Part shown: positions 5,231 through 22,388 of the stretch, piece after piece
Numbering within the stretch: position 1 is the first letter of the stretch
Layout: every line of letters starts with the position of its first letter
From: Pseudomonas maumuensis
GTDB lineage: Bacteria; Pseudomonadota; Gammaproteobacteria; Pseudomonadales; Pseudomonadaceae
Assembly (NCBI RefSeq): GCF_019139675.1
Contig: NZ_CP077077.1
Span: forward strand, 3,472,001-3,536,000
DNA: 64,000 nucleotides
Direction: 5' to 3'
Program-made: the position numbers and the translations under genes
The notes under the pieces: model-generated
Databases searched by the model: none
The model's input: only the letters and a program-made list of their open reading frames with translations
Told to the model about the DNA's origin: nothing

Positions 5231-6379
5231 CTAGTGGGCAAAGCGCTGCCGACTGAAGGCCGGAACTTGTACTTGCAGCGACTGGCCTGCTATTGCTCGG
5301 GCCAGACAACCGCCCAATGCAGGTGCGAACTTGAAGCCATGCCCAGAACAGGCCGAGACATAGAACACACCTGGAAGCTCCTTTGATTCGCCTAATATGA
5401 ACGCTTCGTCCGGTGTCAGGGTGTACACGCACTTGCGGGACGCATAGGGATGAGCGATGAGATCGGGGAAGATGCGATCCACGCACGCTGACATTTCAGC
5501 GATCTGCACGTCGCTAACCGGCTCCAATTGTGTGCCCAGGTCCAGTGCTGATTGCTGATGATTGTGGAACCCAATCTTGATGCCCGGCTCGGCATTGTCG
5601 ATTTGCGGTGTGCCGTACAGCAGGCGACCGTCCTCGAGCTCATAGAGAAACGCTGGGAAGTTCGAAAATCGGTGCTCCACCCCCGGTTTGAATGCACACC
5701 AGTAAATCGGCACGCTGCGAGGTTGCAACAACCCGACAAGGTCGGGAATCAGAGCGTCTGCCAAACTGGCGCCAGTCGCCAACACCAGCTTTTGCGTGCG
5801 CACTTGTTGACCATCGGCCAGGCGTAGTACGAGCCCGTCCGAAACCAGGGTAATTTCCTGTACGGTGCTACCGAAGCGAATTTCAGCACCATGAGCCACT
5901 GCCTGGTTCAGCATTTGCAGCCGAGCATCGTCTGCAGCGATGGTGAATGCGCCTTTCTCGAACACCGCCTCCATGTGCTCATCGGCACGAAAGACTGGAA
6001 ACCTGGCCTCAACCTCAGCTGCGGTCAGACACTGATGCGCAATGTTGCCGGCCTTCGCGGTCGCTACGCTGCCTGAAATCACCCCTGAACGAATCGGTCC
6101 GACGAACAGCCCTCCACTACGGTGCAACAAAGGCCGGTGGCAACTCGCTTGCAGCTCACGCCAGCCGAGGTCTGCTTCTGCCAGCAACGGCAGGTAGTCG
6201 GAACCCTCCCAGTAAGCCTGACGAAAAATCCGCGAACCACCGTAGGAACTGCCATACAGGTTGATTGGCGCTCTGGCCTCGAGCCCTAGGACACCTTGCT
6301 GCTGCTGAGCCAGGCGCCACAACGTGGCGCTACCCACAACTCCCAGGCCGACGACCACGGCACTATAGGTTTTAAGCAT
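5231..6379 (-). CDS. MSOX/SolA-type FAD-dependent amine oxidase
   Basis: This 382-aa flavoprotein of the monomeric sarcosine oxidase / N-methyltryptophan oxidase family starts with a dinucleotide-binding motif, VVVGLGVVGSATLWRL. The SRKCVYTLTPDEAF segment carries a Cys where MSOX attaches FAD covalently, and CSGHGFKFAPALG follows. Such enzymes oxidise secondary or N-methyl amino acids to imines with O2. The ATG at 6379 is preferred over a TTG nine bases upstream because AAAAGGAG is correctly spaced only for the ATG. It is the last gene of the 8942-5231 operon and overlaps the preceding exporter gene by 8 bases. I infer a tailoring step such as imine formation or demethylation. The substrate is unknown. 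Confidence 0.8.
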   Translation of the reverse strand: MLKTYSAVVVGLGVVGSATLWRLAQQQQGVLGLEARAPINLYGSSYGGSRIFRQAYWEGSDYLPLLAEADLGWRELQASCHRPLLHRSGGLFVGPIRSGVISGSVATAKAGNIAHQCLTAAEVEARFPVFRADEHMEAVFEKGAFTIAADDARLQMLNQAVAHGAEIRFGSTVQEITLVSDGLVLRLADGQQVRTQKLVLATGASLADALIPDLVGLLQPRSVPIYWCAFKPGVEHRFSNFPAFLYELEDGRLLYGTPQIDNAEPGIKIGFHNHQQSALDLGTQLEPVSDVQIAEMSACVDRIFPDLIAHPYASRKCVYTLTPDEAFILGESKELPGVFYVSACSGHGFKFAPALGGCLARAIAGQSLQVQVPAFSRQRFAH

Positions 6380-7286
6380 CTTCGACAACTCCTTTTGCCT
6401 TGAAGAAAACGGTATTGAGTAACGGTTCGAGTATTACCAGGAGCATGGCCAAGGCGATAAATGCAAACGCCAGTAATGCGCCATGGGAAGGCATCTGCTT
6501 ATAGAAGATCAGCGCAACGAAGAATTGAGTCAGCGGTAGCACGAACTGCATCAACCCCATGATGCTCAGGGGCAGACGCCGAGCGGCGAACGAAAACAGG
6601 GCCAGCGGCAACAGTGATACTGCACCGCAAAGCAACAGGAGCCCTTTGTCACCAGTGTCCAAGGCTGCGATATCTGCCAGCGGGGTGCTCATCCATATGA
6701 TGAACGGCACCAGTAACAAGCCCAGCACAAGTGATTCGAGAAACAGTCCCGACCACGGCGGCAAACGGGCCAGCTTCTTGAGCCAGGTGTAGCCGCCCCA
6801 CGTCATCCCAATAACCAAGAACACCCGGCTATCCAGCCCACCGGTTTCGAAAAGCAAATAGATAACGCTGCCTATTACCAATGCTAATGACAATCCGCGT
6901 GGCAGGGACATTCGTTCACGATACAGCAGCAAGCCCAGCGAGATCCCCAGAACCGGCGCGATCAGGTAGCCCAGGCCGCTTTCCAGCACGTGCCCATGGA
7001 TTGAAGCCCATATGAACGTCCCCCAGTTAGCGGCAACCAGCAGCGCTGCCCCACCGTGCAGGAGAATGTCGCGTCGAGTCAGGCCGCACAGCAGAGGTAC
7101 GAACTCTTTACGCGCAGCAAGTAGCAGCGTGACACAGAGCAATGAGATCAACACCCTACAGCCGAGCAACGTCAGCGCCGGTAAGGTTGCGAGAGCCTTC
7201 CAGTAAAGGGACGACAGCCCAAGCAGGCAGTTCGACGCCAGCGCAGCAGACAATCCCGCTGCCGCGGCAAAGGGTTTTCCGGCCAT
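6372..7286 (-). CDS. RarD-like EamA (DMT) family exporter
   Basis: This hydrophobic protein of about 304 residues has roughly ten predicted membrane segments in two EamA repeats, including NWGTFIWASIHGHVLESGLG, typical of RarD-like permeases. The family exports amino acids and metabolites. The ATG at 7286 has AGGCGAG at a usable distance; a GTG at 7295 overlapping the upstream stop is the alternative. It sits inside the biosynthetic operon between a methyltransferase and a flavin oxidase, so I infer export of the cluster product or an intermediate. Confidence 0.75.
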   Translation of the reverse strand: MAGKPFAAAAGLSAALASNCLLGLSSLYWKALATLPALTLLGCRVLISLLCVTLLLAARKEFVPLLCGLTRRDILLHGGAALLVAANWGTFIWASIHGHVLESGLGYLIAPVLGISLGLLLYRERMSLPRGLSLALVIGSVIYLLFETGGLDSRVFLVIGMTWGGYTWLKKLARLPPWSGLFLESLVLGLLLVPFIIWMSTPLADIAALDTGDKGLLLLCGAVSLLPLALFSFAARRLPLSIMGLMQFVLPLTQFFVALIFYKQMPSHGALLAFAFIALAMLLVILEPLLNTVFFKAKGVVEDA

Positions 7287-7291
7287 GGTGG

Positions 7292-8131
7292 TCACTCGCC
7301 TATTGGCGTGAAAGAGAACTCAATGATCTCGTAGGACCAGAACAACATGCCGGAGTCGTCGAATCGGCAATGCGCCCGACCCTGGTCGGTCCAGCGTTCG
7401 ATCTCGTCATGCAACATGCCTTGGAGAGCACGCCATTGCTCCGTGTACAGCACAAGCGGGATCTCGTGACGCTCCAGCAATGACCAATCGATCTTGAAAC
7501 GCTCCCCATGGGTACCATAGAGGTCACGCATGACACCGGCAATGTCGACCAACGAATTGAGGCCGATGAGCAGCTTGCCTCCAGGCTTCAGGTAGGCCGG
7601 CACCCTTTCGAAGAATCTGCGCAAGGTCTGTTCGCCATAGAACATGGCTTCCAACGACAGACCTCGTGCAGCCTCAACGGACTGCAATGCCGCGAGGAAC
7701 GCATCCGAGGGCGTCTGCCACCCTGGTGGATTGAACAGAATCACATCGAATCCGCCGTCTGCGCTGGGGACAGCGTCGAACAGATCACCATGCACGAACT
7801 CGATGCATGATTCGCCCAGGTTAACCAGTTCATTTGCCCGAGCCGCTTGAACAGCCTCTAGAGAAATATCGCTGGCAGTGATGTTGCGCATGCCTAACTG
7901 ACGCAGCAGCAACGCATGCACGCCACTCCCGGTCCCCAGATCGAGAAAACGGGCATCCCTGTCGCGCCCGCCAAAACGCCTCGCGATCAATGCCCCGAAC
8001 GCTTCTCCTGCAGGACTCACTCTAAACACCTTGGGGTCGTCGATCAGCGTAATCCGCTGGCCCATGCCGAAATACAGGTTATAGGCCGCAATGTCTGAAT
8101 GGATGCTCCCCGGAGCGGTCAGAATAGTCAT
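7292..8131 (-). CDS. SAM-dependent methyltransferase, class I
   Basis: The 279-aa protein contains the SAM-binding motif FLDLGTGSGVHALLLRQLG (about residues 62-80), an acidic motif II, and FNPPGW, a variant of the (N/D)PPY motif used by N-methyltransferases and PrmC/HemK-type enzymes. The start at 8131 follows a strong AGGAGG. It overlaps or abuts the next gene downstream. In this cluster it may N- or O-methylate the carrier-derived product, and the neighbouring MSOX-like oxidase would be a logical partner for an N-methyl group. The acceptor cannot be read from sequence. Confidence 0.75.
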   Translation of the reverse strand: MTILTAPGSIHSDIAAYNLYFGMGQRITLIDDPKVFRVSPAGEAFGALIARRFGGRDRDARFLDLGTGSGVHALLLRQLGMRNITASDISLEAVQAARANELVNLGESCIEFVHGDLFDAVPSADGGFDVILFNPPGWQTPSDAFLAALQSVEAARGLSLEAMFYGEQTLRRFFERVPAYLKPGGKLLIGLNSLVDIAGVMRDLYGTHGERFKIDWSLLERHEIPLVLYTEQWRALQGMLHDEIERWTDQGRAHCRFDDSGMLFWSYEIIEFSFTPIGE

Positions 8132-8147
8132 GTTTCATCCTCCTGAA

Positions 8148-8942
8148 TCATTCACCCAATTGCGCGGAGCGCCTGGCTGCAGCATCAAGCGCAGCATTGA
8201 CCAGTTCTTTGAAGCCTGCTGCGTCCAAGGCACCGATAGCGCGTTCGGTGGTGCCACCGACAGTTTGCACTTCGCGGCAAATCTGACTGGATGGCTTACC
8301 GCTCGCTCGGATCAACTCGGCAGTGCCGGCAAGCAACTGTAGGGCAACCACCGCTGCTTCTTCCTGGTCCAGCCCCGTGCGAAGCCCGTAATCCTGTAGT
8401 GCATCGGCGAAGTGAGCGACCAATGCCGGTCCACCGCCAGCCAAGGCAGTCCCCGTGTCGATCTGCCATTCCTCTCTGACCCTCAGAGATATTCCGATAA
8501 CGTCGAAGATCTGCCGCGCGCAGTCGATCAGATCCGTGCTGGCATGCGCGGGTGCGTAGTACATCGTGACCCCCTGGGCTACTTCTGAAGGGGTATTGGG
8601 GATGGCTCGCACAACCGAGTCGTGGCCCAGCAGGCGTACTAGCGTTGCATGGGTGATACCCGCCATCACTGAAATCACGGGACCTTGATGACGGGAAAGT
8701 ATCGGATTGCCAGCGAGCGCGCTTGCAAACTGTTGCGGAGGAACGGCCAACACCACGCAGTCGTGTGGCGCCAGCGTTTGAATCTGCGTGGCGGTATCAA
8801 ACCCTTGTTCTCGCCAATAGCCCATACGCTGTGCATCTACTTCAACAACATGCAAGTTAGCAGTGCTTTTCAAGTGCCCCTTCAAACCACGAAGGATTGC
8901 CCCGCCCATATGACCTGCACCGACCATGTAGATGTTCTTCAT
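8148..8942 (-). CDS. Pyrroline-5-carboxylate reductase-like (ProC family) enzyme
   Basis: The 264-aa protein starts MKNIYMVGAGHMGGAIL, an NAD(P)-binding GxGxxG motif, and has the ProC C-terminal signature region TALAGGGPALVAHFADAL with VGGTTERAIGAL. ProC reduces cyclic imines such as 1-pyrroline-5-carboxylate. A cluster-located copy suggests reduction of a pyrroline- or piperideine-type intermediate, not housekeeping proline synthesis. It is the first gene of the minus-strand operon, with AAGGGAT ahead of the ATG and a promoter about 85 bases upstream. Confidence 0.8.
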   Translation of the reverse strand: MKNIYMVGAGHMGGAILRGLKGHLKSTANLHVVEVDAQRMGYWREQGFDTATQIQTLAPHDCVVLAVPPQQFASALAGNPILSRHQGPVISVMAGITHATLVRLLGHDSVVRAIPNTPSEVAQGVTMYYAPAHASTDLIDCARQIFDVIGISLRVREEWQIDTGTALAGGGPALVAHFADALQDYGLRTGLDQEEAAVVALQLLAGTAELIRASGKPSSQICREVQTVGGTTERAIGALDAAGFKELVNAALDAAARRSAQLGE

Positions 8943-9024
8943 GTAAATCCCTTTATGAAATCAACGAAAGACAACACAGCGCTACAACGGGCGCCAGGAT
9001 TGGATCCAACGCGATCCGCCACTG

Positions 9025-9054
9025 AACATAATCGCTATCCAAAAACCCTGTCAA
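9025..9054 (-). promoter_or_regulatory. Sigma-70-like promoter for the 8942-5231 operon
   Basis: Read on the minus strand, TTGACA (9054-9049) is followed after 18 bases by TATGTT (9030-9025). It lies just downstream of the candidate LysR operator and about 85 bases before the first start codon. Confidence 0.55.
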
Positions 9055-9057
9055 CGC

Positions 9058-9317: not shown

Positions 9318-10268
9318 TTAAGCGGACGCTCTCACATAATCCGAAGGTGCCTCGTGAAGTCCGGATTGGTATTGCATCGATAACGCGTTTGAAGTGCTAC
9401 GTATGCATTCCACGAGGTGGTCGACGATTAGGGAAGCGCCACGCTGCAGCGGCCGTACCAAGCTGACACTGAAGGGCACCGAAACCGTGAGGCGCCTGAT
9501 GATCAGGCCTTGGTTAGCGTAAATGTTGGCGACCAATGGGTTGATGATCGATACACCAATGCCGCTCAACACCATTTGGCAAATGGTGACGGCATTGTCG
9601 ACTTCGATAATGTTGTTACGCGAAACACCCAACTGGGCAAAAACACTATCGAGATGGTGCCGGTAAGGGTCATTCGGCGCCAAGTGAATGAAGGGATACT
9701 GGCTGAGTTGCAGTGGGTCTATTTGCGGAAACACGGACAACGGATGACCAGGTGGCAGGACGCACACTTCATCCACATCCGTCAGGTGTTCAGTCGTGGT
9801 TCCCAAGGGTGCGCTCACCCCCTCGATCAAGCCGATATCGTAAGCTTGGCTGGATATCAACGGTTCGATATCGGGCGAGTCGTGAGTCGTGACACTCAGG
9901 TTGATATCCGGATAACGCTCGATGAATCTAGCAAGGCTGGTCGGCAAAATGGTTTGCGATAGTACGGGCAGGCTGACGATACTGATTTTTTCTCTCAACC
10001 CGAGCTTGATGCTTTGCGCCGCTGCGCTTACTCGAGCCAGACCGTCATACGCTTTAAGAATCTCGGAGTGAAGGGCCATACCCTCAGCCGTGGGTTTCAG
10101 GCGTCCTTTGTAGCGCTCGAACAGACGCATGCCGATGCTGCTTTCGAAATTCGAAAGCTCTCGACTTATCGTTGGCTGGGACGTCTCAAGTATCTGGGCG
10201 GCACCGGTGACAGTCCCGGTGATCATGATGGCCTTAAAGATCTCTATATGTCGAAATTTTAGGTGCAT
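9318..10268 (-). CDS. LysR-type regulator of the biosynthetic cluster
   Basis: The protein has 316 residues. Its N-terminal HTH contains VTGAAQILETSQPTISREL, as in NocR/OccR-like LysR proteins, followed by a ligand-binding domain (LPVLSQTILPTSLARFIERY). The ATG at 10268 follows AAGGAG and is preferred over upstream in-frame starts. It lies between the two biosynthetic operons and is transcribed in the same direction as the minus-strand one. I infer that it activates both through the shared ATATCAR-N22-YTGATAT sites, possibly with a pathway intermediate as inducer. Confidence 0.85.
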   Translation of the reverse strand: MHLKFRHIEIFKAIMITGTVTGAAQILETSQPTISRELSNFESSIGMRLFERYKGRLKPTAEGMALHSEILKAYDGLARVSAAAQSIKLGLREKISIVSLPVLSQTILPTSLARFIERYPDINLSVTTHDSPDIEPLISSQAYDIGLIEGVSAPLGTTTEHLTDVDEVCVLPPGHPLSVFPQIDPLQLSQYPFIHLAPNDPYRHHLDSVFAQLGVSRNNIIEVDNAVTICQMVLSGIGVSIINPLVANIYANQGLIIRRLTVSVPFSVSLVRPLQRGASLIVDHLVECIRSTSNALSMQYQSGLHEAPSDYVRASA

Positions 10269-10429
10269 ATTCACTCCTTGAATAACGCGAGCGTACTGTT
10301 TTCGAAGTACCTTGCTTTTTCTTGTGTGGCCCATCGCCCTCGTACACACCCCATCTTACTCAAAACCCTTCCCCTGTGCGTTTCAAACGTAACGGGTTGA
10401 TCGTGCAGTCCTTGGCGCCGGGAAGGCCC

Positions 10430-10735
10430 GAGTCAAGCCGTCGAACTCATGTGCGGAGCCCTGGCAGCCGCTGCGGCTGAACCCGTCAATGCCGCTAAAA
10501 ACCTTCTGCCATGCTGATGGGCAGATCTTTTCGACAAGCTTGCGACGCGAGCCAGGCTTGTTGCCAATCTCAGCACCTGCGCCTGAAAACCCGCCCCATT
10601 GCTAACCATGAGGGGAGAAAAACCCGTCAATCGTAAAGTGTCTTCACGACGTGGCCTGTTCGTCGCTCTGGCACTGTTCGTACACGGTGTGACGCACGGG
10701 GAAGCGCACCCCCAAAACAGCAACTTTATAGTTCA
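10430..10735. repeat. Possible repetitive or structured non-coding element
   Basis: The sequence ACCCGTCAAT occurs twice, near 10474 and 10614, and the stretch from about 10560 to 10720 reads like a family of short intergenic sequences I have seen in other Pseudomonas genomes. It may be related to C4-type antisense RNA loci or to degenerate repeat-derived frames. The identification is from memory only. Confidence 0.3.
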
Positions 10736-10886
10736 GCTGAATGACCATGAATGCCGACTGAATACTTGCATAAAGTCGCAACACCAAACAACAAAAAATT
10801 TAAATCCCCGACCCACCAAACACAAGACGAGCCCACGCCTTTAATGACAGGCACATATGTAAAAACAATACTAATTTGACACCCGA

Positions 10887-10922
10887 ATATCAACTTTTTA
10901 ATGAGCAATACATTTTTGATAT
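10887..10922 (+). promoter_or_regulatory. Candidate LysR operator (copy 2)
   Basis: ATATCAA at 10887-10893 and TTGATAT at 10916-10922 are inverted half-sites with a 22-base gap, followed after 3 bases by TTGACA. Geometry and sequence match copy 1 upstream of the opposite operon. Confidence 0.55.
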
Positions 10923-10925
10923 AGA

Positions 10926-10955
10926 TTGACAGCCATTCCATCAATCATTGAGCAT
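10926..10955 (+). promoter_or_regulatory. Putative activator-dependent promoter of the 11027-22388 operon
   Basis: TTGACA at 10926-10931 lies 3 bases after the operator. No good -10 box is found at 16-18 bases, which would fit an activator-dependent promoter. A second TTGACA at 10876-10881 with TAATGA 17 bases on is an alternative start overlapping the operator. Confidence 0.4.
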
Positions 10956-11026
10956 CGCTGCCGACGGCACTCTTTGCCGACCATACCCAGGGACCTTGGG
11001 TTGAAATAATTCACGATGGAGGTCGC

Positions 11027-12451
11027 GTGCACGCCATGGCTGACAACTCGAATTTCAATGATGTTCTGGATGCGGCGATGACGCGAATGAACCATTGTTA
11101 TCAACAAGTGCCGACACACTTCTGGGCAGATCGCACAGCCTTCACACACCGCTTCGATAACTTGCGTCAAATGGCAGGTCGCAGCGTCTCTCCACCGTTG
11201 ACGCCCGCGCAAGCGCAACAGGCCGTGGTCCATGAGCTATCCACTGCTAAACGCACGGCACTGTACCTTGGCGTACCCTGGTGTATTCAAACCTGTTCAT
11301 TCTGCGACCTCGCTTACTCGCGCAGCCCGCGAGCAGAGGAGAAACGCGAGTACATCGAGGTCATCCTCCAGGAACTGGATACCTACAATGCTGCAGGGCT
11401 CGCCTCGACGCCTGCAGGGAGTATCTACTTCGGTGGTGGCACCCCCTCGATACTCGACAATGATCTGCTCGCAGCCTTCGTCGATGGCACCTTGCAACGT
11501 AGCCACCTGGCAGACAACGCGGTGATCACACTGGAAGCAAGCCCGGCGACGTTGACGGACTCGAAATTGAAGCTGCTTTCCTCTCGGATCAATCGCATGA
11601 GTCTGGGGGTGCAATCCACCGACACTGCGTTGAGACAACGTGAAGGGCGGATCCTGCCACGGGAAAAGCTCCTGGCCCGGGTGGCTACCACGCTGGAGTA
11701 CTTCGACCTGGTCAATACCGATGTTCTGTATGGTATGCCTGGTCAATCACTCGAGTCGGTATTCCTCACCCTGAAAGACCTGGTGGACCTGGGTGTGCCC
11801 TCCATCACCTTCTATCGCAACGAACTATTTCCTGGCACCAAGAGTTTCCAGTTGGCTCGCCAGCAACCCTGGGCAACGGTCTCCGAACACAAAGCCAGAG
11901 AAATGTACTTCCTTGGCAAGACCTACCTCGAATCGTGCGACTACCACGAAAGTCCATTGGGCTGGTTTGTTAAACATAAAAAAACAGAAGCCATCACGTC
12001 ATGGGAAACGATGATTGAGCGCTGGAGTACGGTCGTCCCCTACTTTGGTTTGGGCATGGGCGCCTTTTCCACTGCCGCTAATTATTGGGTACAGAACAAT
12101 GAATCGCTCAGTGGTTGGATGGAGCGTGTGCGTGGTGGTCAGTTGCCATTGGCCAGTGGTTCACTGTTCGATGATAAAGAACGGTTCATGGTCACGCTCA
12201 TGCGTTATATCCGCGTGTTCAGTCGGGTGAAGCGTGATTACTTGCTGACACAGAGTGGAAGTACCCGCTTTGCCGTTGAACGTCTAATACATACCTGGTT
12301 AGAAATGGGCCTGGCCATGCACGAAGATGAGTGGCTGGTGTTCACCGAAGCGGGTTGTTCACTCATCCATTGGCTGATCGATGACTTGGCCCATGCGTTC
12401 GTCGACGGCGCGGTCAATACGGAAATCAAAATCGCTGCGCTAAATATCTGA
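11027..12451 (+). CDS. HemN/HemW-like radical SAM protein
   Basis: The 474-aa protein has a CxxxCxxC cluster motif, CIQTCSFC, with cysteines near residues 86, 90 and 93, binding [4Fe-4S]-SAM. YFGGGTPSIL follows near residue 134, the SAM-contact motif of HemN-type enzymes. HemN-like radical SAM proteins in biosynthetic clusters perform methylations, cyclopropanations and other C-C chemistry, so it is unlikely to be a haem enzyme here. The GTG at 11027 has GGAGG four bases before; an in-frame ATG at 11036 is an alternative. It is the first gene of the plus-strand operon, followed by a carrier protein after 26 bases. Confidence 0.85.
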   Translation: MHAMADNSNFNDVLDAAMTRMNHCYQQVPTHFWADRTAFTHRFDNLRQMAGRSVSPPLTPAQAQQAVVHELSTAKRTALYLGVPWCIQTCSFCDLAYSRSPRAEEKREYIEVILQELDTYNAAGLASTPAGSIYFGGGTPSILDNDLLAAFVDGTLQRSHLADNAVITLEASPATLTDSKLKLLSSRINRMSLGVQSTDTALRQREGRILPREKLLARVATTLEYFDLVNTDVLYGMPGQSLESVFLTLKDLVDLGVPSITFYRNELFPGTKSFQLARQQPWATVSEHKAREMYFLGKTYLESCDYHESPLGWFVKHKKTEAITSWETMIERWSTVVPYFGLGMGAFSTAANYWVQNNESLSGWMERVRGGQLPLASGSLFDDKERFMVTLMRYIRVFSRVKRDYLLTQSGSTRFAVERLIHTWLEMGLAMHEDEWLVFTEAGCSLIHWLIDDLAHAFVDGAVNTEIKIAALNI

Positions 12452-12477
12452 CAACATCACAGGGAGTGATTTATCCA

Positions 12478-12717
12478 ATGAAAATCATTGATGCAATCGA
12501 AATAATCCTGGCTGACTGGATCGATACGTCGACATTCGACCGCAATGACGACTTGTTCGACCAGGGCATCAATTCGTTGCAGATGGCGATTCTTATTGAT
12601 GAGATCAATAAGCGCTTCAACCTCTCCGCCAGCCTCGAGGTCCTCGCCGAAGGGGCTTCGATGACTGCCCTGGCTTCAACGTTGAGCCGGAAATTCTCTT
12701 CTCAGAACATCGGTTAA
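12478..12717 (+). CDS. Acyl/peptidyl carrier protein
   Basis: The 79-aa single-domain carrier protein has the phosphopantetheine attachment motif QGINSLQ with Ser33, where Asn replaces the usual Asp before the serine. It begins MKIIDAIEIILADW and shows the acidic four-helix pattern. The ATG at 12478 has AGGGAG at the right distance; a GTG four codons upstream overlaps that SD. Its position directly before the SyrB2-like halogenase suggests that it presents the amino-acyl substrate to that enzyme, as SyrB1 does for SyrB2. Confidence 0.85.
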   Translation: MKIIDAIEIILADWIDTSTFDRNDDLFDQGINSLQMAILIDEINKRFNLSASLEVLAEGASMTALASTLSRKFSSQNIG

Positions 12718-12729
12718 GGAGCAACCGTG

Positions 12730-13665: not shown

Positions 13666-13723
13666 TGGCGTCACTTGCCGTTCGGTTGCGCGCTCCGTCC
13701 TGTTTGTGAAAGGAAGATCTTCG

Positions 13724-14875: not shown

Positions 14876-14880
14876 GCACC

Positions 14881-16221
14881 ATGCCGATCACTGACAGCGC
14901 TCACTTCGACGAAAGGCCTTTTCCCTCTGACTGGCAGCTACCGGATGACTTGACCGGCCGTATCTTCATCGGTGGCCTCAGGGAAAACCGAGAATGTTAC
15001 TACCTCATCGATTTTGCTCAGAAACTTATCAAAAGCTGCATCGTGCAGGTCGACGGTTACGTTTCGGCATTCTCCGGATACATAGAAAAGCATCTGGCCC
15101 CTGACCAGTACCCTTACGCCTGCGGCTCCAGCAACGCCGTAGCGTATTGTTTCGTTCAACCGCATGAGGCGCTTGAACTTGAAGATGGTCGCGTTGTAGT
15201 TGGCATGCACAACTGCAGCTATGCCCGAGAAATCGAGTTTTCCCAGCGACATGTAGGCCATGTCTCTGAACATGATGAATTCGTGCCACGCATGATGTCC
15301 GCGCAAAACTCGCTTGATCGCGGCACAGGTGAATACCTGTACACCATGACCGATATGCAGCAGCGCTTGCGGGCCTATGGTGCAGGGCCGCAGGAGCTGG
15401 ATACCGAGCTATATGCGCTTGATACAAGCTGGCAAAGCCCGCGCAAGCTGGCCTCGTTGCGCACGCTTGAGGCGTTGCACGAGGTCAAGCAGAGCCCGGA
15501 CCCGCGTTACCTGGTACTGACCGAATTTTGCCTGGCTGCGAACGTTCGTCCTCCTTGCCCTGAAGGAGATCCCTTTGCCGACCCGATGCACTGGCAGGCA
15601 TATCAGGCTGGAGGGCTGCAGGCCAATCGAATCTACCTGGTGGACAAGTCGACCGGGCAGTCCCAGGCACAGCTCGTTGCTGCAGGCACCCCTGGGCATA
15701 TCGAGTTCTCGCGGACGGACCCTTCACGCTTCTACTTGTCTTGCCACAACCTGTCCAAAGCACACGGCAAGTTGATATTGCACGGCCAGGCGACACTGAT
15801 CGCGGGCACGATCCGAGAGGGCGTGCTCAACCTCGAAGATAAGTATCAGCCCAAGGGGCTGTACCGGCTGACATCCCACAAATTGTTCATCTACCAGGGC
15901 GAGCACTACATCGTGCTCAGTGCCTATCCCAATCGTTTTCACATTGTGCGTGAACGTACGCTGCAACGAATCAGGGACGAGCAACTCTTCGAGCACGAAT
16001 CCATCGCGACCCAGGGGCTGCACTTCTGCACCTTGCTCGGACACATGCCGCTATGGATAGAGACTTCCGATAATGGCCGCTACGTGTTGCTGGTTTCGAA
16101 TGAGCTCATCTACGTCTACGACATGCAGCATCGCACCCTGCGTCATGTCCGCGGCTACAGCCATCACGGCGCCTTCTCAGGCACTGCGCACCTGAGCAAC
16201 TTCAACGACGAGCACTATTGA
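14881..16221 (+). CDS. Cluster-associated protein of unknown function, probable beta-propeller
   Basis: The 446-aa soluble protein is not recognised. Repeated beta-rich blocks with Gly/Asp turns and aromatic strands (for example RYVLLVSNELIYVYDMQHRT near the end and HNCSYAREIEFS earlier) suggest a WD40- or carotenoid-oxygenase-like propeller, but I could not define blades or a metal site. Many His residues are present. It starts five bases after the chorismatase-like stop and runs to within about 20 bases of the aminotransferase, so it belongs to the operon. It may be a new enzyme type or a binding protein for the product. Confidence 0.7.
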   Translation: MPITDSAHFDERPFPSDWQLPDDLTGRIFIGGLRENRECYYLIDFAQKLIKSCIVQVDGYVSAFSGYIEKHLAPDQYPYACGSSNAVAYCFVQPHEALELEDGRVVVGMHNCSYAREIEFSQRHVGHVSEHDEFVPRMMSAQNSLDRGTGEYLYTMTDMQQRLRAYGAGPQELDTELYALDTSWQSPRKLASLRTLEALHEVKQSPDPRYLVLTEFCLAANVRPPCPEGDPFADPMHWQAYQAGGLQANRIYLVDKSTGQSQAQLVAAGTPGHIEFSRTDPSRFYLSCHNLSKAHGKLILHGQATLIAGTIREGVLNLEDKYQPKGLYRLTSHKLFIYQGEHYIVLSAYPNRFHIVRERTLQRIRDEQLFEHESIATQGLHFCTLLGHMPLWIETSDNGRYVLLVSNELIYVYDMQHRTLRHVRGYSHHGAFSGTAHLSNFNDEHY

Positions 16222-16241
16222 CCCTTCGATCGAGCGTGAAC

Positions 16242-17450
16242 ATGCAAGCGACAGTCTTCAATACCTTCTTTCGCGAGACCAAGCTGGCCCCCGACAGCGA
16301 CGACTTCTTCAGTTGGGTCCGTACGCTCAAGGCCTCGTCAACTGGACAACCACTCCTCGACTTCGGCGTCGCGGACGCCTTCATGCCACCCGCTGACGAA
16401 CTTTCCGAGGCGTTGAGTGCATTGGCCGCGCGTCGTGAGCTACATGGCTATGTCTACCATCATTCGGCTTACGAGGCGGCGTGCCTACGGCACGCAACCC
16501 AGGGTATCAGGTCGTCGTCCGCGCTGGCCGTTCTACCCACCAGTGGCGCAAAGTCCGCGCTCAATCTGCTGTGTCTGGCCCTGATAGACGCGGGCGACGT
16601 TGTTCTTGTGACGACGCCGGCATACCCTATTTTTTCGACCATGGCACAGCGCCTGGGCGCGACCGTGGTAGAACTGCCCCTGCTGGAGGAAAACGACTTC
16701 CTGCCGAATCTGCAGCAGTTGTCGGCAGAAGTGCTCGCGCGTGCCAAGTTGCTGGTGGTGAACTACCCGAACAACCCGACTGGAAAAGTGCCAAGCCAAG
16801 CGGAATGTGATCGTCTGCTGGCTCTTTGCAAGCTCCACGACATCTTGATGATCAACGACGCGGCCTATGCGGACTTGCTGCCTGCTGATCAACCCCGTGG
16901 ACGTTTCCTGTATGCAGATGGCGCATCGAGCCACTGCATCGAAGTGCATTCGCTCTCCAAGTCATTGCAGATTCCCGGCTGGCGACTTGGCTTCATCCTT
17001 GCCGCACCCGCGTTTATCCAGGCGCTTGGCAAGCTCAGTCTGTTGCACGAAAGTGGGCAGCCGCGCATTTTACTGGATGCGGTTACCACCGTCCTCGACG
17101 ATCGCGCTTTTGCCGAACAGCTTTGCCAGTGCATAGCCAAGCGGCGCACCGTGCTGGTCGATATCCTCCAGGCAAATGGCCTGACGGTGTTCAATCCTGA
17201 CGGCGCGTTCTTTGTCTACGCACAATGTCCCCCCGGTTTGATCAATGGCAGGACGTTCGACACTGCCTACGACTTCTCGCACTACCTGGCCAGTGAACTG
17301 GGGATCCTGACGATCCCCTACCAAGTGGCTGGACGGAGCCAGGTGCGCTTTTCCGTGGCCTTCGGTGGCGACGACGAAACAGTGTTCTCTCGCTTGCGGC
17401 AGCAATTATCCCAGGTGAAGTTCAGGCATTCCGGGAAGGTGTCGAGATGA
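16242..17450 (+). CDS. PLP-dependent aminotransferase, class I/II (DapL/aspartate aminotransferase-like)
   Basis: The 402-aa fold-type I enzyme has VNYPNNPTGKVPS (about residues 173-185), the INDAAYADL segment, and the PLP lysine in EVHSLSKSLQIPGWRLGF, Lys240. The NNPTG and SKS..PGWR motifs resemble LL-diaminopimelate and aspartate-type aminotransferases. Its stop overlaps the start of the KAS III-like gene by four bases (ATGA), implying coupled translation. It probably makes or remodels the amino acid that is loaded on a carrier protein. The ATG at 16242 is used; its SD is weak. Confidence 0.85.
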   Translation: MQATVFNTFFRETKLAPDSDDFFSWVRTLKASSTGQPLLDFGVADAFMPPADELSEALSALAARRELHGYVYHHSAYEAACLRHATQGIRSSSALAVLPTSGAKSALNLLCLALIDAGDVVLVTTPAYPIFSTMAQRLGATVVELPLLEENDFLPNLQQLSAEVLARAKLLVVNYPNNPTGKVPSQAECDRLLALCKLHDILMINDAAYADLLPADQPRGRFLYADGASSHCIEVHSLSKSLQIPGWRLGFILAAPAFIQALGKLSLLHESGQPRILLDAVTTVLDDRAFAEQLCQCIAKRRTVLVDILQANGLTVFNPDGAFFVYAQCPPGLINGRTFDTAYDFSHYLASELGILTIPYQVAGRSQVRFSVAFGGDDETVFSRLRQQLSQVKFRHSGKVSR

Positions 17451-18364
17451 CAATCCATCTTCGCAATGTCGCCGGCGTGCTTGGCGAACAACAGTTTTCC
17501 TATCTCGAAGTCGAGGACTTCGACCGTAAGCGGCGAGAGTATGGGCTACCCGATGCCCCGGAAATAATGGGTTGGCACCGACTCAGTCGAACGCAGGGAG
17601 ATGCCTTCGACCTGGCCCAGCGTGTTATCGAGCAAGTTCTGGCCAAATCGGCGCGGCAGCAACCTATCGACCACCTGATTCTTTGCAGCAGCCGATTTTC
17701 TCTCGGTTTCCTGCAAGGTAACGACCGCCTCGACACGCTTTTACATACCTGCGGCCTCGACCATGTGCCGGTGACCGGAATGACACTCACCGGTTGCAAC
17801 AGTCTGTTCAATGGCTTGCACCTGGCCGATGCCTTGATCAGCTCAAGCAAGTGCGAAAACGTGTTGTTGGTCACGACTGATTCGTCCGTCAGTGAAGCGC
17901 ATCGTTTTGATCGCAATTGCATGTTCAGCGATGCGGCTGGCGGTGTGATCCTGAGCAGCACTGAAAGGTCATCACTGGCGCTGATTGACAGCGCCTGTAG
18001 CTTCGGTCGCGCTCACGAGGCAGGCGCGTTCTTCCGTGGCGATCTCAATGCCCTGGACGCGCTGGTCACGCGCTTGCTCGGGCGTCATGGGCTGCAGCGC
18101 TCAGATATCGCCAAGGTGGTGCTACCCAACTTCTACCTGCCGGTGGTCAACATGCTGCTGAACCGCCTCGGCTTTTCGGCACCGCAGCGTTTCTCAGGCA
18201 ATGCCACACAGATGGCTCACTGCTTTGCAAGCGATTACCTGATGGCGCTCGCCGAACTCTCGCAGCAAGCGGTAGCCGCCGAAGAGCTCTACCTGCTAAT
18301 CGGATATGCGGACCTTCATCAGGGAATCGGGCTCGTACGCAACACCGCAAGGAGTGCAGCATGA
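17447..18364 (+). CDS. KAS III-like thiolase-fold acyltransferase
   Basis: The 305-aa protein has the beta-ketoacyl-ACP synthase III fold. Cys117 lies in LTGCNSLF at the nucleophile position, FSDAAGGVIL matches the family GDGAGAVVL strand, and SGNATQMAH carries the conserved Asn252. Where KAS III has PHQAN, this protein reads PNFYLP, so the catalytic His appears to be Asn228. That pattern suggests an acyl transfer or atypical condensation rather than decarboxylative chain initiation. It overlaps both neighbours by four bases and sits between the aminotransferase and the adenylation enzyme. Confidence 0.75.
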   Translation: MTIHLRNVAGVLGEQQFSYLEVEDFDRKRREYGLPDAPEIMGWHRLSRTQGDAFDLAQRVIEQVLAKSARQQPIDHLILCSSRFSLGFLQGNDRLDTLLHTCGLDHVPVTGMTLTGCNSLFNGLHLADALISSSKCENVLLVTTDSSVSEAHRFDRNCMFSDAAGGVILSSTERSSLALIDSACSFGRAHEAGAFFRGDLNALDALVTRLLGRHGLQRSDIAKVVLPNFYLPVVNMLLNRLGFSAPQRFSGNATQMAHCFASDYLMALAELSQQAVAAEELYLLIGYADLHQGIGLVRNTARSAA

Positions 18365-19914
18365 ACGGAGCATTACCGACAGTAACCGGTGGGCCTGCCT
18401 ATCCAGTGGACTTCTCGCTGGTCGAACACATCGAAGCCATCATTCAGCGTCAGCCATCGAACGTAGCGGCCTTCGACTCCGAGCAGCGCTTGACCTACAG
18501 CGACATCCGGACCGCACTGCTCACCTTGCATGCTCGCCTCCATGAGCTAGGGCTGCGTAGCGGTGATGTGGTCGCAGTGAATGCAACGGTGCAGTTACGC
18601 TATCCCGTCCTGGTTCTGGGGTTGCTGCTTGCAGGCCTGGTCTACTTGCCAATTGCCGCTGCCCTGCCCCCCGAGCGCAAACGCTTGATCTGTGAACAGG
18701 CCCGGCCCGCCATAATCATCACGGATACGGCAATGCCTGATGAATCAATACGAACCTGCTCTCTCTCCACGCTCTTTTCAGGTAAACCTGCGGGAGCAGT
18801 CTTCGACCAGTACCCGGAACCCTCCCCCGAGGCCACCGCCTATGTGATCTTCACCTCAGGCTCGACCGGCGTGCCCAAGGGCGTGAGTATCCCCCGTAAA
18901 GGTTTGCTGAATCGGCTGCAGTGGGCACGCGATTACTACACGCTCGGTAGCGAAGATGTGACGGCCCTGAAAACCCAGGCATCGTTTGACCCATCGATAC
19001 AGGAAGCCGTGCTGCCCTTTTTCTCCGCGGGTGCTGTGTTCGTGCCCGACCAAACTCGCGTCAACTTCCCCAACTACCTGTCTGGCTGCATCCGTGAGCA
19101 CGGTGTGACCATGCTTATCATGGTGCCCAGCCATTTGCAGCATTTGCTCGCGAGCCCGGCAATCGAGGCTTGCCAACACCTCCGGCATATCGTCTGCTGC
19201 GGTGAGCCTTGGGGTGTCGAGCTGATCAGTGCGCTTCATGCGCGGCTGCCAGGTTGCCGGATCTACAACGGCTATGGGCCGACCGAAGCCACGATCGGAA
19301 CCCTGGTGTTCAATCCGCCACGCGGTTATGCCAGCGAAATCATCCCGATTGGTAAACCCATTGCGGGAACACATGTAGCGATCATTGACGACGATCTGCG
19401 CCCCGTGCCATCGGGTGAAGCGGGCGAGCTGATCATTGGGGGTATCTGCGTGGGCAATGGCTACCTGAACAATCCTCAACTGACTGAGCGGCAGTTCCGC
19501 ACCTTGCCGGTTGAAGGCACGGGCGAGGTGAGATTCTATTTCAGCGGCGACATGGCTCGTGCTTTGCCGAACGGCGACATCGTGTTCCTGGGACGCAAAG
19601 ATAACCAGGTGAAGATCAACGGTGTCCGCATCGAGCTCGAAGAGGTCGAACTTGCCCTGCGCAACTGCCCCGGCGTAAGCGATGCCATCGTGGTCAAGCG
19701 AGAAGGTAAGGTGAGTGATGAGCTCCATGCTTTCCTGATCGCTCAAGCACCTTTGGACACGGAGGCGATTGCAACCTCATGCGTCAGGCGGCTCGGCCAG
19801 GCGACGACACCTTCGCGTTTCTTCCAGGTCGACGCCTTTCCACTGAACCAGAACGGCAAGGTCGACCGGCAAGCCTTGGCGGCAAAGCAGATGACTGAGA
19901 GGAGCCTGCCGTGA
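18361..19914 (+). CDS. Free-standing NRPS-type adenylation enzyme
   Basis: The 517-aa AMP-forming ligase has a full set of A-domain core motifs: IFTSGSTGVPKG (A3), SFDPS (A4), NGYGPTEATIG (A5), YFSGDMA (A7), GRKDNQVKINGVRIELEE (A8) and PLNQNGKVDR (A10, catalytic Lys). Asp in the A4 motif indicates an alpha-amino acid substrate. By hand alignment to the GrsA phenylalanine domain I read a specificity code of about DPQIVCGIGK, which matches none I know; Gln at the third place also occurs in proline codes. It should load one or both free carrier proteins and overlaps the next carrier gene by four bases. Confidence 0.9.
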   Translation: MNGALPTVTGGPAYPVDFSLVEHIEAIIQRQPSNVAAFDSEQRLTYSDIRTALLTLHARLHELGLRSGDVVAVNATVQLRYPVLVLGLLLAGLVYLPIAAALPPERKRLICEQARPAIIITDTAMPDESIRTCSLSTLFSGKPAGAVFDQYPEPSPEATAYVIFTSGSTGVPKGVSIPRKGLLNRLQWARDYYTLGSEDVTALKTQASFDPSIQEAVLPFFSAGAVFVPDQTRVNFPNYLSGCIREHGVTMLIMVPSHLQHLLASPAIEACQHLRHIVCCGEPWGVELISALHARLPGCRIYNGYGPTEATIGTLVFNPPRGYASEIIPIGKPIAGTHVAIIDDDLRPVPSGEAGELIIGGICVGNGYLNNPQLTERQFRTLPVEGTGEVRFYFSGDMARALPNGDIVFLGRKDNQVKINGVRIELEEVELALRNCPGVSDAIVVKREGKVSDELHAFLIAQAPLDTEAIATSCVRRLGQATTPSRFFQVDAFPLNQNGKVDRQALAAKQMTERSLP

Positions 19915-20156
19915 GCACATCGTCGATAAGCAATACCCAGGTTGCCGAGCTGTTGAGCCGGCTGTTTCCAGATCTGCCTGACCCGGTCGACCCTAAGATC
20001 ACGCTGCACGCACAAGGCGTCAACTCGATGGGCATGATTGTGTTGATTACACATCTCCAGGATGAGTTCGGCATCGTCTTCGACACTGCCGCCTTTGCCA
20101 AACTTCACGCCCTCACGCTGGAGTCGCTCCAGGGTTTGTGCATCGATCACCGCTAG
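19911..20156 (+). CDS. Peptidyl/acyl carrier protein, second copy
   Basis: The 81-aa carrier protein has the attachment motif QGVNSMGM, Ser39, again with Asn before the serine. It overlaps the adenylation gene by four bases (GTGA), so the A enzyme and this carrier are probably made together as a split A-T module. Two carriers in one operon suggest that an intermediate is passed between them, with the KAS III-like protein a candidate transferase. Confidence 0.85.
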   Translation: MSTSSISNTQVAELLSRLFPDLPDPVDPKITLHAQGVNSMGMIVLITHLQDEFGIVFDTAAFAKLHALTLESLQGLCIDHR

Positions 20157-20291
20157 GGTCTGAACGGGGAGAGAAAGCGCAGTGTACTGGGGTACATGAG
20201 CCTTCCGAGCCCCGTTTCAACGCCGTATGGGCGAGTGCAAATACATTTCGTACCGAGCCTAGGCTGTACCCATCATCCTCATTGGAGCCTG

Positions 20292-21506
20292 ATGTCCTCC
20301 ATGCATTCCTTCTCGCCGTTGCGGTCCTCCTCCGCCCTGCCTACCCTCTTGCTGGGCTCCCTGCTGCACGACCTGGGCAAAGGTATAGCCAGTCCATTGA
20401 TGGTTCTTTTGCTGACTACCAGCTTTGCCTTGAACAGCTGGCAAGCAGGGGGGCTGCTCAGCATTGCCATGCTGCTGGCAACGTTGTTGTCATTGCCGGC
20501 AGGACTGCTTTTTGATTGGTTCGATCGACGGCACCTTGCCACTGCCGCATTGCTGCTCATGGCGTTGGCTGTGGCGCTGCTGCCATTTGCCCAGATCATT
20601 CTGCTCGTCAGCCTGCTGCTGGTGTTCATGGAGTTCGCCGCAGCACTGTTCAGCATCGGCTTGAAGGCACTCTTGGCCGATTTTGTGAAAGAGCAGCAAC
20701 GCGTCCAGGCATTCTCCTATCGCTACATCCTGACCAATGTAGCGTTTGCCATAGGCCCTATCCTCGGCGTTCGGCTGGCGGAGGCTTCCCTGACGTTGGC
20801 TCTTCTGGTGGCAGCGGGTGCCAGCTGTCTGGCGATGGTCGTCATCATGTGTCTAAGCAAGGAGCAAAACCCATCTCGTACTTCGCCGACAAGCGGACAG
20901 CTATCGTTGGCCGAGGTACCGAGGGCCTTGGGCAAAGACCGAAATCTGGTCTTTTATACCTTGGGTTCATTCTTTAACACTGTCGTTCACGGTCGCTTCA
21001 CGTTCTTTCTGTCGCTGTTGCTGCTCTATAAGTATCCTGCCACCCAAGGCATGGAGACACTTTCCTTGTTACTGTTGACCAACGCCGCTACGGTCATTCT
21101 TCTGCAACGCGTCGTCAGCCGTTGCATCACCCTGGAAAGCTTGAACAGTCGGGTACTGATGGGCGCCGTGTTGTTTTCCGCCGGCCTGCTCGGTTTTTCC
21201 GTCTCCGAACAACTTTCAGCCTGGTGTCTGTCGATGTTGATTTTCACCCTCGGCGAGCTTCTGATTCAGCCAGCCGAGTATCTCTATATCGACTCGATCA
21301 GCCCGCCCCACCTTAAAGGCAGCTATTTTGCCGCACACAATCTGGCAAGCCTGGGGGCCGCGATCAGCCCGGCGTGGTGTGGATTCATGCTTTCGCTGGC
21401 TGGCCCCAATGGCCTGTGCTATTCATTGATCGCGTGTGTACTGACGGGCAGCAGCCTGTGTGCCATGCGACCTCGCCTGCTGCCAACCAACTTGGCATCG
21501 AGGTAA
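20292..21506 (+). CDS. MFS exporter
   Basis: The protein has about 404 residues and about twelve membrane segments. FDWFDRRHLATAALLL gives the cytoplasmic loop motif of the major facilitator superfamily between helices 2 and 3, and GRFTFFLSLLLL marks the second half. The ATG at 20292 has GGAG four bases before; an ATG three codons on is possible. It lies in the biosynthetic operon and is the second exporter of the cluster, which suggests secretion of a bioactive product and self-protection. Confidence 0.8.
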   Translation: MSSMHSFSPLRSSSALPTLLLGSLLHDLGKGIASPLMVLLLTTSFALNSWQAGGLLSIAMLLATLLSLPAGLLFDWFDRRHLATAALLLMALAVALLPFAQIILLVSLLLVFMEFAAALFSIGLKALLADFVKEQQRVQAFSYRYILTNVAFAIGPILGVRLAEASLTLALLVAAGASCLAMVVIMCLSKEQNPSRTSPTSGQLSLAEVPRALGKDRNLVFYTLGSFFNTVVHGRFTFFLSLLLLYKYPATQGMETLSLLLLTNAATVILLQRVVSRCITLESLNSRVLMGAVLFSAGLLGFSVSEQLSAWCLSMLIFTLGELLIQPAEYLYIDSISPPHLKGSYFAAHNLASLGAAISPAWCGFMLSLAGPNGLCYSLIACVLTGSSLCAMRPRLLPTNLASR

Positions 21507-21581
21507 ACTTCGATGCCCCAGCATTATCGTTGATAGCCGATTTTCAACTTCAATCCTCTGATAACTTTGGTGCCCTAGCTA

Positions 21582-22388
21582 ATGCAGTTTTTCAAATACC
21601 ATGCGGCTGGAAATGACTACCTTGTCTACCGCGACAGCGCACCGTTTGATTATTCCAGACAGGTCATTTCCCTAATTTGCGACCGGCACCGTGGACTGGG
21701 CAGTGACGGCATTCTGGTACCGCTGATCAAAGAAGGTGAGATGTTGTCGGTGCAGATTTACAACACCGACGGTTCGCAGGCGGAGAAAAGTGGCAATGGC
21801 CTGCGGATTCTCTGCCGCTATCTGTGGGACCAGGGCATCGTCGGCGATGCACCTTTTGAAATTTCCACCAAAGGGGGCGTGGTGACCTGCCAGGTGCTCG
21901 ACAAGGGGCAGCGGATCTCGATCGCCATGGGCCGAGCCACTTTTTCGGAGACGACGGAATTCACTGTTGCCGTTGACGGCACGCCACTACAATTGAATCC
22001 CGTGTCCATGGGAAACCCCCATTGCGTGGTATTCGTCAATCAACCAACCGAAACGCTGGCACGACAGCTGGGGCCGATTATCGAGCAGTTGTCGATCTTC
22101 CCCGACCGTACCAACGTTCAGTTCGTACGGGTCATTGATCAACACACGCTCGAAGTACAGATTTGGGAGCGCGGGGTAGGTTATACGTTGTCCTCGGGCA
22201 CTAGCAGCTGCGCTGCGGCAGCCGTTTCACGTCGGCTTGGCCTGGTCGGGTCGCAGGTGGAGGTGAAGATGGCAGGTGGCGTCATCATGATCGAGCTGGA
22301 CAACGACTACAACGTATTGATGCAAGGCCCGGTGTGCCGAGTCGGTCTGTATTCGCTGGATAGCGAGTGCCTTGCCCAAGTGATTTGA
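21582..22388 (+). CDS. Diaminopimelate epimerase-fold protein with both catalytic Cys replaced by Ser
   Basis: The 268-aa protein has the DapF fold: KYHAAGNDYLVY, RHRGLGSDGIL, NTDGSQAEKSGNGLRI, SMGNPHCVVFV and ERGVGYTLSSGTSSCAAAA. In DapF the two catalytic cysteines lie in CGNG and in ACGTG. Here these positions are Ser70 (SGNG) and Ser205 (SSGTS). Standard two-base cysteine epimerisation is therefore unlikely. The fold also supports isomerases without cysteines (PhzF) and proline-racemase relatives that act as dehydratases. It is the last gene of the operon, 75 bases after the exporter, and is followed by a strong hairpin. It is not the housekeeping dapF. Confidence 0.87.
   Translation: MQFFKYHAAGNDYLVYRDSAPFDYSRQVISLICDRHRGLGSDGILVPLIKEGEMLSVQIYNTDGSQAEKSGNGLRILCRYLWDQGIVGDAPFEISTKGGVVTCQVLDKGQRISIAMGRATFSETTEFTVAVDGTPLQLNPVSMGNPHCVVFVNQPTETLARQLGPIIEQLSIFPDRTNVQFVRVIDQHTLEVQIWERGVGYTLSSGTSSCAAAAVSRRLGLVGSQVEVKMAGGVIMIELDNDYNVLMQGPVCRVGLYSLDSECLAQVI

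What the first reader, a model, noticed from the sequence alone, without database searches (positions are those of the whole stretch)
5231..22388. Unrecognised halogenase-containing biosynthetic cluster in two operons around a LysR gene
Seen: a SyrB2-type halogenase, two free carrier proteins, a free adenylation enzyme, a KAS III-like transferase, an aminotransferase, HemN-like radical SAM, chorismatase-like and DapF-like proteins, a P5C-reductase-like enzyme, a methyltransferase, an MSOX-like oxidase and two exporters. Established: SyrB1/SyrB2 and CmaA/CmaB/CmaD chlorinate amino acids on carrier proteins. Inferred: an amino acid is adenylated, loaded, chlorinated, then ring-closed or transferred, reduced and exported. 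The gene set matches neither syringomycin nor coronamic acid loci, nor any other cluster I know. Obligate four-base overlaps link aminotransferase, KAS, A enzyme and carrier.
Basis: partly seen in the sequence, partly recalled or inferred. Interest (0 to 1): 0.93.

Follow-up and report, generated by a model that had tools for sequence, protein, structure and literature searches.

The report
Rare chlorinating gene cluster in Pseudomonas
A rarely seen Pseudomonas gene cluster appears to build and export a small amino-acid-derived compound that is chlorinated on a carrier protein, and it includes an undescribed propeller-shaped protein that often travels with a chorismatase-like enzyme.

Summary
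In detail: every named gene is in 5231-22388.

LysR plus eleven genes (9318-22388) is syntenic in all four Pseudomonas genomes whose loci I could read, but rare: propeller in 4 of 398 Pseudomonas genomes. The second operon (5231-8942) adjoins it in two of the four; elsewhere it stands without any core gene in 10 of 10 loci read, one with a frame-broken oxidase.

The halogenase forms its own clade (13 of 13 HQG; 108 of 110 others HQA). The DapF-like protein has both catalytic cysteines replaced by serine in four of four copies, so it is probably not an epimerase. Chorismatase-like and propeller genes also adjoin in a deltaproteobacterial plasmid.

Best reading: a free-standing carrier-protein pathway that chlorinates an aminoacyl thioester, moved between carriers by a ChlB3-like acyltransferase, then dechlorinated or rearranged. 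Product and substrate are unknown; ten literature searches listed no description.

The parts
5231..6388 (-). MSOX / N-methyltryptophan-oxidase-like FAD oxidase (operon 2, optional module)
   Evidence: PF01266; NF008425 293 bits over cut-off 257; matched in 10 of 10 other operon-2 loci read, split over two frames in L063
6372..7295 (-). EamA/RarD-like exporter (operon 2)
   Evidence: PF00892; TIGR00688 112.5 bits, below cut-off 130
7292..8131 (-). SAM-dependent methyltransferase (operon 2)
   Evidence: PF05175; relatives at E 1e-25 or better in 15 of 298 Pseudomonas genomes, own included
8148..8942 (-). P5C-reductase-like (operon 2)
   Evidence: PF14748; TIGR00112 186.1 bits, below cut-off 196.75
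9318..10349 (-). LysR regulator beside the core (probable start 10268)
   Evidence: PF00126, PF03466; 75-87% identical orthologue beside the core in the other three genomes
11027..12451 (+). HemN/HutW-like radical SAM protein, CX3CX2C
   Evidence: PF04055; TIGR04107 169 bits (cut-off 400); the two solved relatives listed are NocN and HemN
12466..12717 (+). carrier protein CP1
   Evidence: PF00550; GINSLQ serine conserved in four genomes
12727..13665 (+). SyrB2-type halogenase, HQG subfamily
   Evidence: TIGR01762 359.8 bits; PDB SyrB2 and CytC3; own clade, all HQG
13724..14875 (+). chorismatase-like (FkbO/Hyg5 fold)
   Evidence: PF21168, PF01042; TIGR04444 162 bits below cut-off 325; Hyg5-type Gly, Gly, Cys and catalytic Glu present
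   Evidence: searches (18 relatives; model pLDDT 88)
16218..17450 (+). PLP fold-type I aminotransferase-like
   Evidence: PF00155; best NCBIfam model LL-DAP aminotransferase, none of the 25 listed rows of 74 over its cut-off
17447..18364 (+). KAS-III-like acyltransferase, Cys117/His258/Asp263
   Evidence: PF08545; residues invariant in 4 of 4; ChlB3 triad Cys113/His296/Asp301 in PMC9573744
18361..19914 (+). free-standing adenylation enzyme
   Evidence: PF00501; TIGR01733 359 bits over cut-off 317
19911..20156 (+). carrier protein CP2
   Evidence: PF00550; 4-bp overlap with the A enzyme
20196..21506 (+). MFS exporter, YdeE-like (probable start 20292)
   Evidence: PF07690; NF007472 194 bits, below cut-off 582
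21582..22388 (+). DapF-fold protein with both catalytic Cys replaced by Ser
   Evidence: TIGR00652 220 bits; SGNG and SSGT motifs in 4 of 4 cluster copies against CGNG and ACGT in 4 of 4 best-scoring DapF copies of the same genomes
10350..11026 (.). divergent LysR/radical SAM intergenic region, probable control region
   Evidence: position only; promoter-like matches 5 against 2.2 expected (sd 1.5) in 8800-11100, not evidence of function

Best explanation
It is a compact, probably horizontally moving pathway for a small amino-acid-derived metabolite. SHOWN by sequence: the gene set, its order, its conservation, and the residue patterns. INFERRED: (1) the A enzyme adenylates an alpha-amino acid and loads CP2; (2) the KAS-III-like protein, by a Cys-His-Asp acyltransferase mechanism like ChlB3, moves the aminoacyl group between CP2 and CP1, the job that CmaE and SyrC do elsewhere; (3) the HQG halogenase chlorinates the aminoacyl group on CP1; (4) the chlorine is probably cryptic: the aminotransferase-like PLP protein, the Ser/Ser DapF-fold protein and the radical SAM protein eliminate, cyclise or alkylate the chlorinated unit; (5) the chorismatase-like protein and the probably metal-binding propeller act together on a second, chorismate-derived or enol-ether unit; (6) the MFS protein exports the product and LysR controls the operon. 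Operon 2 is an independent module that in two species sits next to the core and may add a tailoring branch.
For: Twelve-gene synteny in the window, LB-090624, P. orientalis and G168. Halogenase clade with SH-aLRT support 100 and 14 clade-specific positions, the HQG glycine among them. KAS Cys, His and Asp at ChlB3 spacing, with Asn228 aligned to the His of a solved KAS III (that this His is the catalytic one is recalled). Ser/Ser DapF in 4 of 4. Chorismatase Gly, Gly, Cys, Glu. Propeller and chorismatase-like proteins on contigs of the same length for 8 of 18 propellers; propeller with a clade halogenase for 3 of 18. Adjacent chorismatase-propeller pair in Smac51. Glutamate racemase mutants with an active-site Cys changed to Ser eliminate HCl from 3-chloroglutamate, and DAP epimerase eliminates fluoride from fluorinated substrates (PMC8142540 section 9).
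Against: No activity or product is known. The A-enzyme substrate cannot be read reliably. The order of steps is a guess. In the cited glutamate racemase mutants one Cys remained, and that enzyme is another protein; here both Cys are gone, so the DapF-like protein could instead be a binding or protective protein. The chorismatase score is half the curated cut-off, and the same residues occur in all 37 sequences aligned, so they do not discriminate. In Klebsiella sp. DNRA6 the contig with the chorismatase-propeller pair is not among the 120 listed of 2027 halogenase hits, so that pair may serve a separate purpose. The KAS model failed (pLDDT 46).
Confidence: 0.6

Rival explanations
1. Both operons form one pathway: operon 2 reduces, N-methylates and oxidises a cyclic imine derived from the chlorinated amino acid and exports it.
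For: The window and LB-090624 share both operons as one block, 5230-22378, at 80-82% DNA identity, with low GC throughout.
Against: Operon 2 is missing from the locus in 2 of 4 core-bearing genomes, incomplete on another contig of P. orientalis, and present without any core gene in 10 of 10 loci read.
Confidence: 0.22
2. A disguised coronamic-acid or chlorothreonine-type pathway: gamma-chlorination and cyclopropane closure or release of a chloro amino acid, with the remaining genes as ornaments.
For: SyrB2-type halogenase with separate carriers and a shuttle-like acyltransferase; ACC synthase is among the PDB relatives of the aminotransferase-like protein (E 1e-11).
Against: The A enzyme and carrier are separate proteins; no alpha/beta-hydrolase shuttle appears in the Pfam scan of the block; the halogenase is a separate HQG clade.
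Confidence: 0.12
3. The centre of the pathway is the chorismatase-propeller pair, which makes an aromatic or carbocyclic acid; the chlorinated amino acid is a substituent that the KAS-III-like transferase attaches to it.
For: The pair recurs in Smac51 and Klebsiella sp. DNRA6, where no clade halogenase was seen in what I looked at; CerJ, a KAS-III-like enzyme, transfers a malonyl unit to a sugar hydroxyl.
Against: No separate aryl-activating enzyme was seen; the A enzyme keeps an Asp at the amino-binding position (manual mapping on recalled positions); no chorismatase activity is known to me for this branch.
Confidence: 0.2

Closest known systems
Coronamic acid pathway CmaA-E (Pseudomonas syringae)
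   Same: [quoted passage not shown] halogenase in PMC8407142, passages).
   Different: Here A enzyme and carrier are separate proteins, the shuttle is KAS-III-like, and radical SAM, chorismatase-like, propeller, PLP and Ser/Ser DapF proteins are added.
Syringomycin SyrB1/SyrB2/SyrC
   Same: SyrB2 is the nearest solved halogenase; carrier-tethered chlorination logic.
   Different: No NRPS condensation domain in the Pfam scan of the block; 13 of 13 clade members read HQG where 108 of 110 others read HQA.
ChlB3/CerJ KAS-III-like acyltransferases
   Same: Cys, His and Asp with the same five-residue His-Asp spacing as ChlB3.
   Different: Only weak sequence similarity to solved KAS-III proteins; acts, if inferred correctly, on an aminoacyl group.
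Hyg5-type chorismatases (CH-II)
   Same: Diagnostic Gly, Gly, Cys and catalytic Glu (PMC7170507 passages).
   Different: About half the curated score; next to a propeller gene; no separate aryl ligase in the block.
DAP epimerase DapF
   Same: Family score well over cut-off.
   Different: Both catalytic Cys are Ser in 4 of 4 cluster copies.
Carotenoid cleavage oxygenases and selenium-binding proteins
   Same: Beta-propeller fold with conserved histidines in or directly after predicted strands.
   Different: No sequence match; many unrelated propellers score as well, so no kinship is claimed.

Membership tests
SyrB2-type non-haem iron halogenase | curated family score (TIGR01762) | tested here: met
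   359.8 bits against 226.3
SyrB2-type non-haem iron halogenase | two His with a non-carboxylate residue in the third ligand position | tested here: met
   HQG in 13 of 13 clade members; second His in 122 of 123 aligned
SyrB2-type non-haem iron halogenase | halogenates a carrier-tethered substrate | not testable with these tools
   adjacent carrier genes only
Coronamic acid (Cma) pathway | A-T didomain protein (CmaA) | tested here: not met
   A enzyme and CP2 are separate ORFs, 18361-19914 and 19911-20156
Coronamic acid (Cma) pathway | alpha/beta-hydrolase-type shuttle (CmaE; fold recalled) | tested here: not met
   no such Pfam family in the block; KAS-III-like protein instead
CerJ/ChlB3 acyltransferases | Cys-His-Asp with His to Asp spacing of five | tested here: met
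   C117, H258, D263 invariant in 4 of 4 against ChlB3 C113, H296, D301
CerJ/ChlB3 acyltransferases | close structural match | tested here: inconclusive
   model pLDDT 46 from four sequences, not searched
Hyg5-type chorismatase (CH-II) | Gly, Gly, Cys and catalytic Glu | tested here: met
   37 of 37 aligned sequences, so not discriminating
Hyg5-type chorismatase (CH-II) | curated family score (TIGR04444) | tested here: not met
   162.3 bits against 325
DAP epimerase | two catalytic cysteines | tested here: not met
   Ser/Ser in 4 of 4 cluster copies; Cys/Cys in 4 of 4 best-scoring copies elsewhere in the same genomes
Pyrroline-5-carboxylate reductase | curated family score (TIGR00112) | tested here: not met
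   186.1 bits against 196.75
Class C (HemN-like) radical SAM methylase | CX3CX2C and HemN-like core | tested here: met
   CIQTCSFC; NocN E 8e-19, HemN E 5e-15; the curated HutW cut-off is not reached
Class C (HemN-like) radical SAM methylase | methyl or methylene transfer | not testable with these tools
   no assay
Carotenoid cleavage oxygenase | iron held by four His of the propeller (recalled) | tested here: inconclusive

The most novel reading that the evidence does not exclude
The His-rich propeller is a new family of metal enzyme that works as a partner of chorismatase-fold proteins, and the Ser/Ser DapF-fold protein is a natural dehydrochlorinase, so that the cluster carries out a cryptic-chlorination chemistry not seen in any described pathway.
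Probability: 0.2. Interest if true: 0.85.

Novelty: new variant of a known kind. Interest (0 to 1): 0.62.

Why it matters
It offers an HQG subfamily of carrier-dependent-type halogenases distinct from SyrB2, a KAS-III-like protein in the place of a CmaE/SyrC shuttle, a protein family with no Pfam entry that adjoins chorismatase-like genes in distant bacteria, and a DapF fold stripped of its catalytic thiols inside a chlorination pathway. A 2021 review states that, apart from two hydroxyproline cases, all known eliminations by racemases and epimerases are on unnatural substrates (PMC8142540 section 9); a natural dehydrochlorinase would change that. Most of this can be tested with about a dozen small proteins.

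Tried and rejected
Close-relative scan of genome contigs with the chorismatase-like protein found none; the alignment scan with the propeller gave two loci; a viral-contig scan gave none. Class, genus and phylum searches with the propeller gave 1 of 369, 4 of 398 and 2 of 398 genomes, own genome included each time; the genomes were drawn from larger groups.

The por hydrazine-synthetase cluster of P. orientalis DSM 17489 (PMC11705231, passages) was considered. The second strong MetRS-like match of that genome lies on another contig (C36, the cluster is on C11), so por is probably not this cluster.

Literature: ten paper searches, open-licence PMC only; in some only part of the matching papers was listed (20 of 34, 15 of 35, 8 of 23). 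None of the listed papers described this gene set by title or abstract; propeller with chorismatase gave 0 papers. Subscription journals were not searched.

A-enzyme specificity code was mapped by hand on recalled GrsA positions (D-P-Q-I-V-C-G-I-G-K, same in the four orthologues); it matches no code I recall and is not used to name a substrate.

Full report
WHAT IS THERE. On the minus strand: LysR (9318-10349) and, further out, P5CR-like, methyltransferase, EamA and MSOX-like genes. Four-base overlaps tie propeller-AT-KAS-A-CP2 in the window. The block has GC 0.563 against 0.652 for the window parts 1-5229 and 31001-64000. The host is probably Pseudomonas soli or a near relative, because the best propeller hit is a 97% identical P. 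soli protein.

THE CORE IS A UNIT. Identities run from about 51% (carriers) to about 84% (halogenase) in P. orientalis and G168, and from 73 to 92% in LB-090624. It is rare: the propeller occurs in 4 of 398 Pseudomonas genomes, 1 of 369 genomes of the class and 2 of 398 of the phylum, own genome counted each time; 18 propeller proteins were found in a database of 5.8 billion. Hits named P. graminis (propeller, chorismatase-like, halogenase) and Pseudomonas sp. KFB-139 (chorismatase-like) suggest further carriers that I could not read.

OPERON 2 IS SEPARABLE. It lies beside the core in G000 and LB-090624, where both operons lie in one shared DNA block from 5230 to 22378. It is absent from the locus in P. 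orientalis and G168. P. orientalis has an incomplete copy on another contig: only the ends of the oxidase and the C-terminal part of the P5CR-like protein match (L041). The methyltransferase is in 15 of 298 Pseudomonas genomes; two of these are the core-bearing G000 and G081. Of the other 13, I fetched ten. All ten have the four genes in the same order, and no core protein matched at E 1e-6 in the 19 kb read; in one (L063) the oxidase is split over two frames. The three others were not read beyond the short search locus. None of the 13 had more than weak Rid-domain matches to the chorismatase-like protein. So operon 2 is a stand-alone unit that may or may not contribute to the core's product.

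THE HALOGENASE. It is a full SyrB2-type enzyme. I aligned 123 sequences: the window's, three orthologues, and 119 of the 120 listed hits (of 2027; the one left out is the window's own cluster). The 13 most similar form one clade with SH-aLRT support 100. All 13 have HQG; of the other 110, 108 have HQA, one HQE and one HQV. Fourteen positions in all, the glycine included, separate the clade at the threshold used. Clade membership was set from identity (at least 64%) before the tree was built. HXG is known from other halogenases (a plant enzyme in PMC12346261, passages), so this is a subfamily and not a new mechanism.

THE SHUTTLE. PMC8748450 (passage) describes CmaE moving aminoacyl groups between carriers. 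No comparable family appears in the block. The KAS-III-like protein has Cys117, His258 and Asp263, invariant in four of four orthologues, spaced like Cys113, His296 and Asp301 of ChlB3, which moves an aryl group from one carrier to another (PMC9573744, passages). I therefore infer that it is the shuttle. Its structure model failed, so this rests on residues.

THE DAPF-FOLD PROTEIN. It scores above the DapF cut-off, yet both catalytic Cys are Ser in 4 of 4 cluster copies, while the best-scoring DapF elsewhere in each of the four genomes has both Cys. Two of the genomes carry a third DapF-type match that I did not examine. It is therefore unlikely to be an epimerase. Glutamate racemases with an active-site Cys changed to Ser eliminate HCl from 3-chloroglutamate (PMC8142540 section 9, read in full), which makes dehydrochlorination a reasonable idea. 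Against it: those mutants kept one Cys.

CHORISMATASE-LIKE PROTEIN AND PROPELLER. The Hyg5-type Gly, Gly, Cys and catalytic Glu (PMC7170507, passages) are all present, but they are present in 37 of 37 sequences that I aligned (window, 8 plasmid proteins, 28 of 120 listed hits of 1324), and the curated score is not reached. The propeller has no Pfam family: of 19 members scanned at E 10 only four scattered weak matches came up, best E 0.08. AlphaFold gives a confident model (pLDDT 88.1, pTM 0.89) that matches beta-propellers. Foldseek's best matches are apocarotenoid oxygenases, TM about 0.49, and structural alignment scores many unrelated propellers alike. Seven His are invariant in 19 sequences: 95, 110, 200, 273, 289, 333, 437. 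Four lie in a predicted strand and three directly follow one; six remain in a 19% identical relative. That relative, on a plasmid of Deltaproteobacteria bacterium Smac51, is followed with a 4-bp overlap by a chorismatase-like gene. Propeller and chorismatase-like hits share a contig length in 8 of 18 cases, including P. graminis and Klebsiella sp. DNRA6, where the locus tags are HG597_20195 and HG597_20200; three of the 18 also share it with a halogenase of the clade. The Klebsiella contig is not among the 120 listed halogenase hits, so the pair may be independent of chlorination.

MOBILITY. Besides low GC, transposase genes (HTH_Tnp_1 and integrase-core pieces) lie beside LysR in P. orientalis, and a phage-integrase gene lies beyond the DapF-like gene in LB-090624.

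VERDICT. A real, rare carrier-protein chlorination pathway for which I found no description, in kind related to Cma and Syr systems but built from different parts. The substrate, the order of steps and the product remain inference.

Noticed in passing
L055-L064 (ten unnamed Pseudomonas genomes) and window 5231-8942: A stand-alone four-gene operon P5CR-like, methyltransferase, EamA, MSOX-like oxidase of unknown function recurs in Pseudomonas without the halogenase core; in L063 the oxidase is split over two frames.
   Followed up: partly
L065:9608-12462 (plasmid CP026658.1): Distant propeller and chorismatase-like genes overlap by four bases in a cockroach-gut deltaproteobacterium, with glycosyltransferase, PEP-utilising and radical SAM genes nearby.
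   Followed up: partly
L066, L070, L071 (Aureibacter and Parabacteroides plasmids): A chorismatase-like gene is preceded by a propeller-like protein with di-haem cytochrome c domains; it is not detectably related to the window's propeller. DhaK genes lie nearby in two of the three.
   Followed up: partly
window 26765-30959: A transposase gene (27094-28692, IS481-type domain) and an ArsB gene (29248-30531) match the LB-090624 contig that carries the cluster, in opposite orientation.
   Followed up: partly
L041:6522-8963 (P. orientalis): Incomplete copy of operon 2: oxidase and P5CR-like genes match only in parts, EamA and methyltransferase have long open frames.
   Followed up: partly
G676:C20:210191-210970 and G168:C1:3397112-3397891: A third DapF-type gene in P. 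orientalis and G168, not examined.
   Followed up: no
L058:3186-4067: A 67% identical relative of the window's flanking LysR gene (4175-5170) lies about 2.8 kb from operon 2 in G040, which may hint at a shared insertion region.
   Followed up: no
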